Below, piece by piece: positions 3,945 to 27,480 of a DNA stretch of 36,475 nucleotides (within the stretch, counting starts at the first letter, position 1; every line of letters begins with the position of its first letter). The position numbers were made by a program, and so were the translations under genes. The notes below the pieces were generated by a model. It was not told the origin of the DNA. It did not search any database and saw nothing but the letters and a program-made list of their open reading frames with translations. Source of the DNA: an uncultured Clostridia bacterium (lineage in GTDB: Bacteria > Bacillota > Clostridia > Oscillospirales > Ruminococcaceae); contig CANPYR010000023.1 of the NCBI GenBank assembly GCA_947588805.1, positions 1 to 36,475 of the forward strand. The letters are read 5' to 3'.

Positions 3945-4082
3945 TTCCCGTTCTCCTTTCCGAAGTGTCGTTATTTATATTATACATCTGCAAGCGAGGT
4001 TTGTCAAGGGCGAATTAGGGGAAATTCTGTTTATCGGGGGGAGGGGATATCTGCTTTTCTATGCGAAGCAGGAGGCTTTATT

Positions 4083-4119
4083 TCTAACTTCTAATCATCT
4101 AACTTTCTATCCTCTAAGA
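4083..4119 (+). repeat. Degenerate heptad array A (TCTAAYY units)
   Basis: Five TCTA-starting units recur at spacings of 7, 8, 8 and 7 bases (TCTAACT, TCTAATC, TCTAACT, TCTATCC, TCTAAGA). It resembles the arrays at 4288, 8669, 25001 and 27432. It lies in the 552-base gap between two divergent genes (3945-4496), which otherwise holds a long stem-loop, one composite repeat and a promoter. Confidence 0.6.
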
Positions 4120-4222: not shown

Positions 4223-4322
4223 GGGAGCGAAAGCCGCACCCGAGCATTTATTGCGCCGAGGGGGAGTGTAGAGGGATAGTAAGCAGGTCTGATTTCTGAT
4301 TTTTCAATTCTGTTTTCTGACA
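4223..4322 (+). repeat. Composite hairpin-plus-heptad repeat, copy B
   Basis: The unit starts with GGGAGCGAAAGCCGCACCC, followed by GAGCATTTATTGCGCC. After about 30 variable bases come five exact-phase heptads at 4288-4322 (TCTGATT, TCTGATT, TTTCAAT, TCTGTTT, TCTGACA). The first 40 bases align by eye with the copy at 24933, for example the shared AAAGCCGC, CCCGAGC and TTTAT blocks. The length is about 100 bases in both. Confidence 0.65.
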
Positions 4323-8417: not shown

Positions 8418-8660
8418 ATGAATCTTAACGCAAATCAGCAGGATATGTTAATAAAGATGACCTCGGAGAAGCTGGGGATACCTAAAGAAGATCTTACCCG
8501 CGAGCTTAAGGCCGGGACGTTTGACAGGCTTCTGACTACTCTCCCGCGGCAGGATCAGCAGAAGCTGACCGCGGCGCTTTCAAATCCCGCTACCGCAAAA
8601 GCGGTGCTTTCAAGCCCGCAGGCTAAGGAGCTTATGAAAAAGATCTTCGGCGGGAAATAA
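8418..8660 (+). CDS. Small hypothetical protein, first of a three-gene set
   Basis: This 80-residue soluble protein is predicted to be helical: NANQQDMLIKMTSEKLGIPK at the start, then QQKLTAALSNPATAKAVLSS and a basic end (KKIFGGK). GGAG lies about ten bases before the ATG. It is followed by a heptad repeat array and two further small genes in the same direction, so an operon is likely. I recognise no family. The repeated pattern of short helices separated by Asn-Pro or Ser-Pro turns resembles small scaffolding or regulatory proteins, but that is only an impression. Confidence 0.75.
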   Translation: MNLNANQQDMLIKMTSEKLGIPKEDLTRELKAGTFDRLLTTLPRQDQQKLTAALSNPATAKAVLSSPQAKELMKKIFGGK

Positions 8661-8668
8661 ATATTCAA

Positions 8669-8703
8669 CTAATCACTAATAACTAACAACTAACAACTAC
8701 CAG
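8669..8703 (+). repeat. Heptad array C between two operon genes
   Basis: Five consecutive seven-base units, CTAATCA, CTAATAA, CTAACAA, CTAACAA and CTACCAG, fill nearly the whole 52-base gap between two genes. No hairpin precedes this array, unlike copies B, D and E. Confidence 0.75.
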
Positions 8704-24932: not shown

Positions 24933-25035
24933 GGGGAGAAAGCCGCTCCCCGAGCCTTTATCTCGCCCTCGGCATGAAGCAGAAACTCAGCGCCGGCATA
25001 TCTGATTTCCGACCTCTGACCTCTGTCTTCTAACC
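24933..25035 (+). repeat. Composite hairpin-plus-heptad repeat, copy D
   Basis: GGGGAG and CTCCCC (24933-24938 and 24946-24951) form a hairpin, followed by GAGCCTTTATCTCGCCC, about 30 variable bases and five exact heptads at 25001-25035 (TCTGATT, TCCGACC, TCTGACC, TCTGTCT, TCTAACC). CGCG follows. The start aligns with copy B. The hairpin is not downstream of any rightward gene, so here it is part of a repeat and not a normal terminator. Confidence 0.7.
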
Positions 25036-25043
25036 GCGCTTTT
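25036..25043 (+). repeat. 8-base target duplication of the IS element
   Basis: GCGCTTTT at 25036-25043 is repeated exactly at 25951-25958, immediately outside both ends of the IS. The match extends by one C on the left, making nine bases. Eight to nine bases is normal for IS1-family insertion. Confidence 0.85.
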
Positions 25044-25950
25044 GGGAGTGTACAAACCGCCCACAATATGCTATAATATCATCGAGGTGATAAAAATGTC
25101 AAGAGTAGCAAAAATTGATGAAAACATATATTGCCCAAAATGCGGGAAACATGAACATCAGGTAAAACACGGCAAAAACAAGTCGGGATCACAAAAATAT
25201 CGTTGCAACGACTGCAACATAGACTACACGCCCGAACCGCGGCCGTGGCAGTACAGTGAGGAAGTCCGCGAGCAAGCAATCAAAACATACTATTCCGGAG
25301 TAAGCGGAAGAAAGGTAGGACTTTTGAATAATTTCAACAAATCCAACGTCTATAATTGGATAAAAAAACGAAATAAGTAATCAACAAAGTGTTGAAAACC
25401 GGTCTAAACTTTCTGAAATTTTCAAGAAATTTAATATCAAGTCGAAGCTTTATGAGCTGGACGAGCTTTACTGGTTCATAGGCAAAAAGCCTGAAACGGA
25501 AACTAAAGAGAATGCTTATTTGATGTCGATGGTTTCCCGCAAACCGCGTATTATGACGGGTCATCAAGTCGCAGAGGATAAATCTGCACGCAGGATTCAG
25601 GAGATAGTAGACAGTGCGCCATATGCAGATTACTACTGCACCGACGGGTATTTCGGGTATTTGAATGTGATCTACCCCGGAAAGCATATTTATAACTGCC
25701 ATGACAAGAGCGATACTTTCACAGTCGAAAGCGTTAATGCAGACCTACGCGACTATATACCGTTACTCAGACGCAGGAGCAGATGCTTTGCGCGGAGCAT
25801 AGAAACGCTGCGGGCAGTGGTTGACGTTTTTGTTGATGCTTATAATAAGTTTGGAATTGCAAAATTGATGTATCGTGAGAAGTATCCAAAAGGCGAATTG
25901 CCTTTCGGACTTGTTAATTTTCTTTAATGTGAGCGGAATGGGCACACCGC
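25044..25950 (+). mobile_element. IS1-family insertion sequence, about 907 bp
   Basis: The element lies between 8-base direct repeats. Its ends are imperfect inverted repeats: GGGAGTGTACAAACCGCCCACA on the left against GCGGTGTGCCCATTCCGCTCAC read inward from the right, sharing GTGT, CCGC and CACA blocks. A promoter sits in the left end (TGTACA, 17 bases, TATAAT at 25072-25077). It encodes an InsA-like zinc ribbon/HTH part and an InsB-like catalytic part in different frames. The intact target duplication shows a direct and fairly recent insertion between the composite repeat D and the MFS promoter. Confidence 0.85.
25096..25927 (+). CDS. IS1-family transposase, split by a frame change
   Basis: The first frame (25096-25380) encodes about 94 residues with an InsA-type zinc ribbon (CPKCGKHEH, then YRCNDC) and a helix-turn-helix (SGRKVGLLNNFNKSNVYNW), ending KKRNK-stop. 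The second part reads from 25379 in the +1 frame (SVENRSKLSEIFKKFNIKSK, ELDELYWFIGKK) to 25927. It carries the IS1-type catalytic segment YYCTDGYFGYLNVIYPGKHI, followed by CHDKSDTFTVESVNADLRDY. The frames would join if one A of the seven-A run at 25362-25368 were skipped. IS1 uses -1 frameshifting at A6C, but here a +1 change is needed, so this is either slippage on the A7 run or an inactivating insertion. Confidence 0.8.
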
Positions 25951-25965
25951 GCGCTTTTCTTTATG

Positions 25966-25994
25966 TTGACTTTTTCCGGTTATTGTGATACAAT
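25966..25994 (+). promoter_or_regulatory. Promoter of the MFS transporter
   Basis: TTGACT (25966-25971) and TACAAT (25989-25994) have a 17-base spacer. The promoter starts eight bases beyond the IS target duplication, so the insertion left it intact but removed whatever lay upstream. Confidence 0.8.
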
Positions 25995-26035: not shown

Positions 26036-27325
26036 ATGAAGTTAAACGTCAGACAGACCGTTCTTATCGGGCTTCCGTTCGCGTCCATCCTTGCCTTCTG
26101 GCAGTTCTACGACCAGGTCATACCGGTAATACTTGAAAACCGCTTCGGCTGTTCAACTTTGATTACAAACGTCGTTATGTCTATCGATAACGTCCTTGCG
26201 GTGTTTATGCTGCCGCTGTTCGGGACTCTTTCCGATAAGACTTCTACACGTCTCGGAAGGCGCACGCCGTATATCCTCTTCGGAACGCTCGCCGCGGCGG
26301 CGCTTATGATAGTGATGGCGGCGCTGACCGAATCAAGAAGCTTTGTCGGATTCTTTATCTGCCTTATGATCCTTCTTGTCACTATGAGCATATATCGCTC
26401 CCCGGCGGTGGCGTATATGCCGGACGTGACTCCGAAGCCGCTTCGCTCTAAAGGGAATGCGGTTATAAATCTTGTGGGATATATCGGTGGGATATTCTCT
26501 ACTATTTTAATGACTTTTCTTATCTCCTCCCGCACTACCGACAGCGGAATCATAGAATACGACAGCTTTATCCCGATCTTTACGGCCGTAGCTCTGTTTA
26601 TGCTTGTCACGGTCCTTGCGATGGTGTTCACGCTTAACGAGAACAAGGTCGTAAGAAATTCCGGAGTCGGAAACGACGCGGAGGAAAAGGCTTCGGCGGG
26701 TGAAAAGCTTCCGAAGCCGGTGGTGAAAAGTCTTGTGTTTATCCTTGTCTCGGTGTTTCTGTGGTTCACGGCCTATAACGGAGTTACCACGTCTTTCTCG
26801 CGCTATTTTGAAAACCGTTACGGACTTGACGCGGGCGTGTCGTCTTTGTATCTCACCGTCGCGACGGTCGCGGCTATCGCTTCCTTCGTTCCGCTGGGGA
26901 TCATATCCTCCCGTCTCGGAAGAAAGAAAACTATCCTTATAGGTATCACGGTCATGACAGTATGCTATCTTGCGATATTCTTCCTTGGCTCCGCAGGGGT
27001 TTTGATGTACATAGTTTTCGCGACCGTAGGTATCGGCTGGGCTGCTATCAACGTAAACTCCTTCCCGATGGTAGTTGAGATGTGCCACTCGTCCGACGTT
27101 GGAAAATATACCGGATACTACTACGCGTTTTCTATGGCGGCGCAGATCTTCACTCCGATATTCTCGGGGATTTTGATAACGAAGTTAGGCTATACAGTTC
27201 TATTCCCGTATGCGGTGATATTCTCGGCGCTGAGCTTTATAACTATGATATTTGTAAGACACGGCGATTCAAAGCCGGAGCAAAAGGCTTCTGTGCTTGA
27301 GCACTTCGACGTGGATATAGATTGA
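26036..27325 (+). CDS. MFS transporter, SLC45/GPH-like sugar-type
   Basis: This 429-residue protein has 12 predicted membrane helices and the MFS loop signature in GTLSDKTSTRLGRRTPYIL after helix 2, with a second basic loop (SSRLGRKKT) in the C-terminal half. The sequence resembles the SLC45/melibiose-type carriers (YRSPAVAYMPDVTPKPLRSK, with GNAVINLVGYIGGI), which import di- or oligosaccharides with protons or cations. A central hydrophilic loop lies near residues 205-232. AGGGGG lies before the ATG. It could supply the intracellular GH31/GH43/esterase enzymes, though it is 4 kb away and separately transcribed. The substrate is not determined. Confidence 0.85.
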   Translation: MKLNVRQTVLIGLPFASILAFWQFYDQVIPVILENRFGCSTLITNVVMSIDNVLAVFMLPLFGTLSDKTSTRLGRRTPYILFGTLAAAALMIVMAALTESRSFVGFFICLMILLVTMSIYRSPAVAYMPDVTPKPLRSKGNAVINLVGYIGGIFSTILMTFLISSRTTDSGIIEYDSFIPIFTAVALFMLVTVLAMVFTLNENKVVRNSGVGNDAEEKASAGEKLPKPVVKSLVFILVSVFLWFTAYNGVTTSFSRYFENRYGLDAGVSSLYLTVATVAAIASFVPLGIISSRLGRKKTILIGITVMTVCYLAIFFLGSAGVLMYIVFATVGIGWAAINVNSFPMVVEMCHSSDVGKYTGYYYAFSMAAQIFTPIFSGILITKLGYTVLFPYAVIFSALSFITMIFVRHGDSKPEQKASVLEHFDVDID

Positions 27326-27375: not shown

Positions 27376-27410
27376 TTTCGGGGGAGCGAAAACGCGCCCC
27401 CTGATTTTTT
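27376..27410 (+). terminator. Terminator after the MFS gene, embedded in repeat copy E
   Basis: TCGGGGG and CCCCCTGA flank AGCGAAAACGCG, followed by TTTTTTC. Here the hairpin of the composite repeat works as a normal intrinsic terminator. Confidence 0.75.
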
Positions 27411-27480
27411 CACCCATCCTCCCGCCGTTTGATCTCAGATCTCTGACCTCTGATCTCCGACTTCTGTCCTTTGTTCGCGG
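27380..27480 (+). repeat. Composite hairpin-plus-heptad repeat, copy E
   Basis: A hairpin at 27380-27401 is followed by TGATTTTTTCACCC, about 20 variable bases and six consecutive heptads from 27432 (ATCTCAG, ATCTCTG, ACCTCTG, ATCTCCG, ACTTCTG, TCCTTTG). Then TTCGCGG ends the unit. Order and length (about 100 bases) match copies B and D. Confidence 0.7.

What the first reader, a model, noticed from the sequence alone, without database searches (positions are those of the whole stretch)
27380..27480. Dispersed ~100-bp composite repeat: GC-rich hairpin, T-rich stretch, then a degenerate heptad array
Three copies (4223-4322, 24933-25035, 27380-27480) share the same order, length and orientation, with a GGG-AG-GAAA-C-CCC-type hairpin, a T-rich stretch, about 20-35 variable bases, five or six 7-base units near TCTGAYC, and a CGCG end. 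The phase is exact in B, D and E, which is unlikely by chance across separate intergenic gaps. The heptad units vary in sequence while keeping the period, suggesting selection on spacing or a copying mechanism. Each copy with a hairpin lies upstream of a promoter for a rightward gene. Heptad arrays of this kind are known in cyanobacteria (STRR), but I do not know this hairpin-linked form.
Basis: partly seen in the sequence, partly recalled or inferred. Interest (0 to 1): 0.8.

Follow-up and report, generated by a model that had tools for sequence, protein, structure and literature searches.

The report
Promoter-seeking mini-transposons carrying seven-base combs
The seven-base repeats are pieces of a small jumping DNA element that, probably with a helper insertion sequence also present in the window, tends to land 16 bases in front of gene promoters; jumping DNA that seeks promoters was known before, but from unrelated transposons.

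Summary
The three heptad arrays are real. The genome has 117 matches to the heptad pattern, some several to an array, and 0 to the reversed control. The "hairpin + heptads" composite is a minority form: 6 of 85 arrays without a terminal hairpin in the stretches fetched. The best-preserved heptads lie in ~124-bp non-autonomous mobile elements: left end GGGAGTGT..CCGC, body, (TCTRAYN)3-TCTRTYY-TCTTGAT in 7-nt register, terminal hairpin, 9-bp target duplications. The window holds a probable helper, an IS1-like insertion sequence (25044-25949) whose two ends match the element's left end. It lies between heptad copy 24933-25035 and a promoter. IS and mini-elements tend to insert with one end 16-17 nt upstream of the -35 box of complete sigma-70-type promoters: 51 of 85 elements in eight related MAGs and 28 of 34 here (either side), against 1.5% of random points (one side). 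A second genus with the IS but no heptad match shows the same targeting, so targeting belongs to the transposase. Such targeting is published for Mutator-like transposons (TnGBS/ISLre2, ISKra4); an IS1-like lineage doing it, with heptad-comb passengers, appears new. Polymerase tethering is inferred, the heptads' role unproven. The window copies are diverged relatives.

The parts
24933..25034 (+). Heptad composite copy (GGGGAG.. segment, spacer, heptad array 24998-25034); diverged, without the terminal hairpin
   Evidence: element-profile hit 24998-25031, 14.9 bits, E 0.0004; hairpin z -0.8
25035..25043 (.). Left copy of 9-bp target-site duplication CGCGCTTTT
   Evidence: sequence
25044..25949 (+). 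IS1-like insertion sequence, 906 bp; ends GGGAGTGTACAAACCGCCCAC / GTGAGCGGAATGGGCACACCG; built-in promoter-like TGTACA 25049 - TATAAT to 25077
   Evidence: both ends hit by the element profile (25044-25075 +, 11.5 bits; 25948-25925 -, 7.2 bits)
25096..25380 (+). InsA-like ORF with zinc ribbon (94 aa; weak HTH hit)
   Evidence: PF03811 E 3.9e-7, 30.1 bits, above gathering score; NF033558 59.3 bits, below its cut-off of 100 (on the longer reading 25042-25380)
25364..25927 (+). InsB-like DDE transposase frame (187 aa), overlapping InsA near an A7 run (25362-25368): a shift of frame is needed to join them
   Evidence: PF03400 E 2.2e-4, 22.0 bits, below the gathering score of 24.1
25950..25958 (.). 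Right copy of 9-bp target-site duplication CGCGCTTTT
   Evidence: sequence
25966..25994 (+). Target promoter TTGACT-N17-TACAAT upstream of the MFS-like ORF 26036-27325; -35 starts 16 nt after the IS end
   Evidence: the gene name is from its look, not from a family search
27379..27480 (+). Heptad composite copy (finding): GC-rich hairpin 27378-27404 with T run, probably the terminator of the preceding ORF; heptads 27430-27470
   Evidence: 11.1 bits, E 0.006 at 27437-27470; z -3.2; terminator role is inference, and the scan did not list it
4223..4322 (+). Heptad composite copy; heptads 4285-4318, diverged
   Evidence: 8.8 bits, E 0.03; z -0.5
4082..4117 (+). A-type heptad array (TCTAAYY)n ending TCTATCCTCTAAGAG, related motif

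Best explanation
The heptad arrays belong to a lineage of ~124-bp non-autonomous, MITE-like transposable elements and their decayed relatives. They are probably moved in trans by a co-resident IS1-like insertion sequence, one copy of which lies at 25044-25949. The transposase joins an element end to target DNA so that the 9-bp duplicated target spans about 16 to 8 nt upstream of the -35 hexamer of a complete sigma-70-type promoter, usually with the element's right end facing the promoter. I infer that the transposase docks on promoter-bound RNA polymerase (or its sigma/alpha parts) and cuts at the upstream edge of the polymerase footprint. I infer that the in-register heptads plus terminal hairpin are an alternative right end, a comb that binds transposase or a host protein in 7-bp steps, because the mini-elements lack a clear right-hand inverted repeat. 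Shown: mobility (near-identical copies, duplications), matching left end, fixed distance, company of both promoter boxes, conserved comb. Inferred: IS1-like transposase as mover, polymerase tether, function of the comb, descent of the three window copies from such elements.
For: Copies: 44 BLAST matches in own genome; 22 full copies at 94% identity or more. Duplications: 9-bp, by eye; at least 8 of 9 letters alike in 41 of 64 elements whose left end was found. Targeting: 85 unique right ends from 80 loci of 8 MAGs, chosen by last heptad + terminal hairpin, scored for a promoter (8 of 12 matches or more): right side 45/85, left side 6/64, either 51/85; other offsets 3.2%, random points 1.5% (both one side). 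Own genome: right 27/34, either side 28/34; other offsets 6.2%. With a stricter test either side 39/85, right side 33/85, against 213/40,000 random points. All 48 insertion sites with TTGAC at 16/17 nt also have a -10, against 73/140 non-coding TTGAC. Nested re-insertion at the same 9 bp, and element-free uvrB promoters in sister species. IS itself: 8 of 15 IS right ends show a promoter at 16-17 nt (IS ends picked out by eye); window IS at 16 nt. In G332, another genus of the family with no heptad match, 4 of 7 IS right ends have a clear promoter at 15-16 nt (by eye). Ends: a profile of 64 elements has as its top five window hits the three heptad arrays and both IS ends; next hit 3.7 bits, best in 10 locally shuffled windows 6.1. 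Comb: in four heptads, positions 1-3 and 5 average 96-100% identity, positions 4, 6 and 7 66-76%; 50/64 elements have four units in register before TCTTGAT, 11 have three, 3 none (TCTTGAT and the hairpin were fixed by the selection). Distribution: TIR pattern in 10 of 12 element-bearing genus genomes and 0 of 19 others.
Against: 34 of 85 insertions show no recognisable promoter at the fixed distance on either side; some abut other elements, others look non-promoter. The share differs between genomes: with a stricter right-side test 24/34 in G000 but 6/14 in G004, 5/16 in G018, 6/15 in G028, 3/15 in G022 and 0/3 in G014. 7 of 15 IS right ends lack a promoter at 16-17 nt (1 has it at 20; 4 abut another element). 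The element's right end lacks a clear TIR, so trans-mobilisation by this IS is not proven. An ISLre2/ISKra4-type transposase, known to target promoters, was not searched for in these genomes. PF03400 and NF033558 hits are below curated cut-offs. The TIR pattern also matches the elements' own left ends, so its distribution is not independent of theirs. Of 61 hairpin-less arrays with 3 or more units in the own-genome stretches only 23 have a promoter within 80 nt (random 8.6%), and the window copies match the profile only over the heptads.
Confidence: 0.7

Rival explanations
1. Heptads are regulatory sites next to promoters (binding comb for a transcription factor or RNA-binding protein), spread or kept by selection; the mobile elements merely picked them up.
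For: Several hairpin-less arrays abut the -35 box (e.g. TCTGTCTTCTAATAGCGC-TTGACT); 23/61 have a promoter within 80 nt against 8.6% random; positions TCT..A are conserved while others vary.
Against: 38/61 hairpin-less arrays have no promoter within 80 nt; orthologous uvrB promoters are present without heptads in sister species (by eye); the IS targets promoters in G332, a genome without heptad matches.
Confidence: 0.2
2. The mini-elements are moved by an unseen Mutator-like (ISLre2/TnGBS or ISKra4-type) transposase, which is known to insert 13-17 bp upstream of sigma-A promoters with 8-9 bp duplications.
For: Same distance, duplication length and orientation bias as published for those families (PMC3942029).
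Against: Element left ends match the ends of the IS1-like element, whose own insertions show the same targeting and whose ORFs hit IS1 models. Presence of a Mutator-like gene was not tested.
Confidence: 0.12
3. No targeting: insertion is random and only insertions just upstream of promoters survive in compact genomes.
For: Intergenic space is limited; insertions inside genes are lost (general knowledge, no call).
Against: Survival does not predict a two-position peak at 16-17 nt (31 of 42 right-side promoter hits at these two offsets of 0-44) or re-insertion into the same 9 bp.
Confidence: 0.04
4. Heptads are ordinary slippage microsatellites, or a copying mechanism unrelated to transposition.
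For: Heptads vary about twice as much as the rest of near-identical copies (0.62 against 0.29 changed copies per site among 22); several chimeric elements switch family at the array.
Against: Unit number is nearly constant and in fixed register with the terminal hairpin.
Confidence: 0.04

Closest known systems
TnGBS / ISLre2 family and ISKra4 group (p-MULT 3 and 4, Mutator-like DDE transposases; PMC3942029: abstract, passages and the Discussion section read)
   Same: Insert at fixed distance (13-17 bp, peak at 16 bp from IRR for p-MULT 3) upstream of sigma-A promoters; 8-9 bp duplications; orientation set by asymmetric ends; contact with the RNA polymerase initiation complex proposed for TnGBS
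   Different: Here a small two-ORF IS1-like transposase (about 94 + 187 aa) and non-autonomous elements with a heptad comb; no Mutator-like transposase-domain hit
IS1 family
   Same: InsA zinc ribbon, InsB hitting the IS1 DDE models weakly, overlapping frames, TIRs, 9-bp duplication
   Different: Precise promoter-distance targeting; I saw no report of it for IS1 in the listings and passages searched (classic IS1 target preferences are recalled, not read)
MITEs of bacteria (e.g. MITEAba12, PMC6382973, passages read; review PMC10969869, passages read)
   Same: ~110-125 bp, non-coding, 9-bp duplications, dispersed, co-resident IS with matching end
   Different: Right end is heptads + hairpin rather than an inverted repeat of the left end; for MITEAba12 the passages report AT-rich duplications without sequence trend
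ISAjo2 / IS1202 family (PMC10132070, abstract and section list read)
   Different: Site is the XerC site of dif (5 bp), not promoters; TnsB-like transposase
STRR of cyanobacteria (search listing only; otherwise recalled) and TAACTGA repeats (PMC4679880, abstract and passages read)
   Same: Dispersed intergenic 7-nt direct repeats in short arrays
   Different: TAACTGA sets lie mostly just upstream of start codons with mostly constant letters; here the letters vary, the best copies lie inside mobile elements and the sites are upstream of the -35

Membership tests
IS1 family insertion sequence | InsA with zinc ribbon | tested here: met
   PF03811 30.1 bits against cut-off 26.1 for the window copy; not found at E 0.01 in the G332 relative
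IS1 family insertion sequence | IS1-type DDE domain | tested here: inconclusive
   PF03400 20.0-23.7 bits against 24.1; NF033558 21.7-59.3 bits against 100, split over two ORFs
IS1 family insertion sequence | Overlapping insA/insB read by a frame shift | tested here: inconclusive
   ORFs overlap near an A7 run in two copies read (window, L110) and overlap in L370; in the window the shift needed is +1 (or -2), not shown to occur
IS1 family insertion sequence | Terminal inverted repeats and 8-9 bp target duplication | tested here: met
   TIR near GGGAGTGTMCAWWCCRCCCAC (by eye); 9-bp CGCGCTTTT (window) and GGTAGATGT (L109); L115, L121 and L123 show no clean duplication
MITE | Short, non-coding, flanked by target duplications, dispersed | tested here: met
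MITE | Terminal inverted repeats at both ends matching an autonomous element | tested here: not met
   Left end matches both IS ends; right end is the hairpin GATGTGGCC-N5-GGCCACATC with only weak similarity by eye; hence 'MITE-like', not filed as MITE
TnGBS/ISLre2/ISKra4 | Insertion 13-17 bp upstream of sigma-A promoter | tested here: met
   (promoters judged by consensus only)
TnGBS/ISLre2/ISKra4 | Mutator-like (p-MULT) transposase | tested here: not met
   IS ORFs gave IS1/IS1595-type and generic zinc-ribbon/HTH hits, plus one IS256_N_4Cys zinc-binding domain hit at its cut-off (27.1 against 27 bits), but no transposase-domain hit of that kind
Cyanobacterial STRR | Contiguous heptanucleotide repeats of defined cyanobacterial sequence classes | not tested
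   No STRR sequences were compared; the named relatives of the host are uncultured Clostridia MAGs

The most novel reading that the evidence does not exclude
A lineage of IS1-like transposases has independently evolved RNA-polymerase-guided integration at the same 16-bp distance as the Mutator-like TnGBS/ISLre2 elements, which would make promoter-bound polymerase a convergent docking site for unrelated DDE transposases. Its passengers replaced one inverted repeat by a five-tooth heptad comb plus hairpin, a new kind of transposon end.
Probability: 0.4. Interest if true: 0.8.

Novelty: new variant of a known kind. Interest (0 to 1): 0.62.

Why it matters
If right, promoter-targeted transposition is not a peculiarity of Mutator-like elements: a minimal IS1-like enzyme does it too, at the same distance, which points to RNA polymerase itself as the landing pad and makes that testable with a very small transposase. 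Insertions replace the DNA at about -50 and upward of many promoters, uvrB among them, so the elements could rewire regulation of a whole genome without breaking genes. It also explains many of a puzzling class of dispersed heptad repeats as transposon ends and relics, a lead for other unexplained heptad repeats.

Tried and rejected
Rfam: no match at gathering scores in the window. Canonical two-sided TIR MITE: rejected because the right end is not an inverted repeat of the left. Strictly one-way insertion: rejected, since 12 of 93 left ends carry a promoter pointing away at 15-17 nt. TTGAC alone as the target: disfavoured (48/48 have a -10). "Terminator-adjacent" insertions, noticed by eye, proved in several cases to be reverse-oriented promoter insertions. 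G160, an order relative with 9 heptad matches, showed no comparable element by eye in the five stretches fetched. A class-level search for the InsA protein (391 genomes) added no new genome; an order-level one (345 genomes) matched 10 genomes besides own and G022, of which only G332 and one more (L356) could be read for targeting here. Novelty of promoter targeting as such: I first thought it unprecedented, and dropped that when the last paper search listed PMC3942029. Earlier searches had not shown it in their listed rows (one search listed 20 of 492) or returned nothing, so absence from these searches is weak evidence. No paper on IS1-like promoter targeting was seen in those listings. Structure prediction, fold search and covariance models were not used. 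Rows dropped: one of 30 loci (L250) was not parsed, and 14 others were not IS right ends by eye, elements whose left end was not found or of odd length; one search says 82 stretches but lists 80, and only those 80 were used.

Full report
Observation. The window is contig C23 of a 2.0-Mb draft genome (G000, 86% complete). Genome-wide, TCTGANNTCTGANNTCTGA has 117 matches, sometimes several in one array, and its reversed control none. The hairpin is strong only in the 27380 copy. The GGGAG.GAAA-type composite precedes 6 of 85 arrays that lack a terminal hairpin, in the 286 kb of the genome held. So the composite is real but a small branch of something larger.

Mobile elements. Fetched copies showed a ~124-bp element repeated almost letter for letter. 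BLAST found 44 matches in the own genome. Aligned flanks showed 9-bp duplications such as GATTTCTTA, CGGACGCTT and GCTTCCCAC; they are at least 8/9 identical in 41 of 64 elements from eight related MAGs whose left end could be found, out of 85 right ends. Consensus of 64 elements: GGGAGTGTCcAttcCGCaCgCATTAT, a body with a small hairpin (GTCgCC-gcA-GGcGAC), ACCTTGAA, three TCTRAYN units, TCTRTYY, TCTTGAT, and a hairpin GATGTGGCC-N5-GGCCACATC. Over the four heptads before TCTTGAT, positions 1, 2, 3 and 5 average 99, 100, 97 and 96% identity and positions 4, 6 and 7 66-76%; 50 of 64 elements have four units in exact register, 11 have three and 3 none. TCTTGAT and the hairpin were fixed by the way the elements were chosen. 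Several elements in the own genome are chimeras that change family at the heptads.

The helper. Directly after heptad copy 24933-25035 the window holds a 906-bp IS (25044-25949) flanked by CGCGCTTTT on both sides, with an InsA-like zinc-ribbon ORF and an InsB-like DDE frame. IS1 models are hit, the DDE ones below their cut-offs. A profile of the mini-elements, 63 of the 64 from other genomes, has as its five best window hits the three heptad arrays and the two ends of this IS (7.2-14.9 bits). Next best is 3.7 bits; the best of ten locally shuffled windows is 6.1. InsA relatives in the genus were found in G000, G003, G004, G014, G017 and G018 of the 20 genus genomes searched, and in G022; G028 shows the transposase C-terminus by eye. 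The end pattern occurs in 10 of the 12 element-bearing genus genomes and in 0 of 19 others, although it also matches element left ends and so is not independent.

Targeting. Downstream of the element's right end a -35 hexamer recurs at 16-17 nt. In 118 insertions from 12 genomes (34 own; 84 from 80 stretches chosen from the BLAST list), 49 have at least 5 of 6 TTGACA letters exactly there. To avoid choosing by the array, I took right ends found by the last unit and terminal hairpin in a scan of 84,980 genomes: 82 stretches, of which 80 are listed, all 80 from eight MAGs titled uncultured Clostridia, isolates 'Lapin' (French for rabbit; a rabbit-gut origin is my inference). Records of the own genome may be left out of that scan. 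Of 85 unique right ends, 45 have a promoter (8 of 12 matches or more) at 16-17 nt on the right and 6 of 64 on the left; 51 of 85 on either side, against 3.2% at other offsets and 1.5% at random points, each one-sided. In the own genome it is 27 of 34 on the right and 28 of 34 on either side, against 6.2% at other offsets. 34 of 85 show none, and the share varies by genome: with the test, 24/34 in G000, 6/14 G004, 5/16 G018, 6/15 G028, 3/15 G022, 0/3 G014. Every insertion with TTGAC at that place also has a -10 box (48 of 48), against 73 of 140 non-coding TTGAC (those 140 include insertion sites). Right-end-first orientation is preferred but not absolute: 12 of 93 left ends carry such a promoter.

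Empty and re-used sites. The uvrB promoter was read upstream of the gene in loci from 30 of 31 genus genomes. By eye, G000 and G028 each carry two nested elements just upstream of TTGAC, and G028's junctions repeat the same 9 bp (TGGTCAATG). G015 has a heptad remnant abutting the -35. G022, G014, G004 and G017 have the promoter without an element. In a few loci (e.g. G018) the gene start was not placed, and no uvrB match was found in G005.

The IS targets promoters too, without heptads. Of 15 IS right ends picked out by eye (transposase C-terminus visible, among 30 loci fetched), 8 have a promoter at 16-17 nt and 1 at 20; 4 of the others abut another element and 2 show nothing. In G332, another genus of the family with no TCTRA heptad match, 7 IS right ends were found. 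Four have a clear promoter at 15-16 nt. One has TTGACG at 16 with a weak -10 (and a better-matching pair starting at 9), one has a weaker reverse promoter (TTGCTT-N18-TATACA) 16 nt from its left end, and one abuts another copy (by eye). One order-level relative (L356) has its promoter at 20 nt.

Mechanism. Shown: mobile, promoter-proximal at fixed distance, targeting a property of the IS. Inferred: the cut at about -52/-43 lies at the upstream edge of the RNA polymerase footprint (textbook knowledge), so docking on polymerase is the simplest way to require both boxes. The heptad comb is then best read as a substitute right end; a protein reading it in 7-bp steps is inference.

What is known. 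TnGBS, ISLre2 and ISKra4-group elements insert 13-17 bp upstream of sigma-A promoters with 8-9 bp duplications, and polymerase contact has been proposed for TnGBS (PMC3942029). Here the way of working is the same, but the transposase is IS1-like, so it is not a member. ISAjo2-type IS (PMC10132070, abstract) are another fixed-distance case. TAACTGA heptads (PMC4679880) differ in place and letters.

The window copies. They match the element profile only over the heptads and show no duplications I could see. I read them as decayed or divergent relatives. Copy 24933-25035 sat next to its promoter before the IS split them. In 27380-27480 the hairpin is probably just the terminator of the preceding ORF, though the simple terminator scan did not list it. 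Of 61 hairpin-less arrays with at least three units, 23 have a promoter within 80 nt (random 8.6%); of 32 hairpin-ended ones, 27 have one downstream. The history of the hairpin-less arrays is thus only partly explained.

Noticed in passing
own genome C16:18450, C29:8169, C1:128851, C21:34702, C27:33165: Chimeric elements: halves of different families joined at the heptad array, as if the array were a recombination or template-switch point.
   Followed up: partly
own genome C6:32359 and C6:15660: Pairs of heptad arrays in opposite orientation (TCTAAYY type and TCTGAYY type); at C6:32359 each seems, by eye, to abut the -35 box of one of two divergent promoters.
   Followed up: partly
window 8667-8699: A further 7-nt tandem array, AACTAAT x 4.7, the strongest period-7 stretch of the window, apparently outside the family.
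   Followed up: no
G018 C11:34222-34331, C21:36761-36869, C59:8483-8592; G017 C38:1610-1720: Pairs of IS-type ends in opposite orientation spanning about 110 bp (listing): probably a second, heptad-free class of mini-element with inverted repeats at both ends.
   Followed up: no
G160 (another family of the order), L349-L353: Nine TCTGA heptad matches in unrelated contexts; independent origin or transfer unknown.
   Followed up: partly
own genome C1:183100 and C6:31082: A repeat of about 245 bp, 94% identical, that runs into a heptad array: perhaps a longer heptad-ended element.
   Followed up: no
window 8536-8634, minus strand: ARAGORN reports a tRNA with an odd four-base anticodon inside an ORF; probably spurious.
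   Followed up: no
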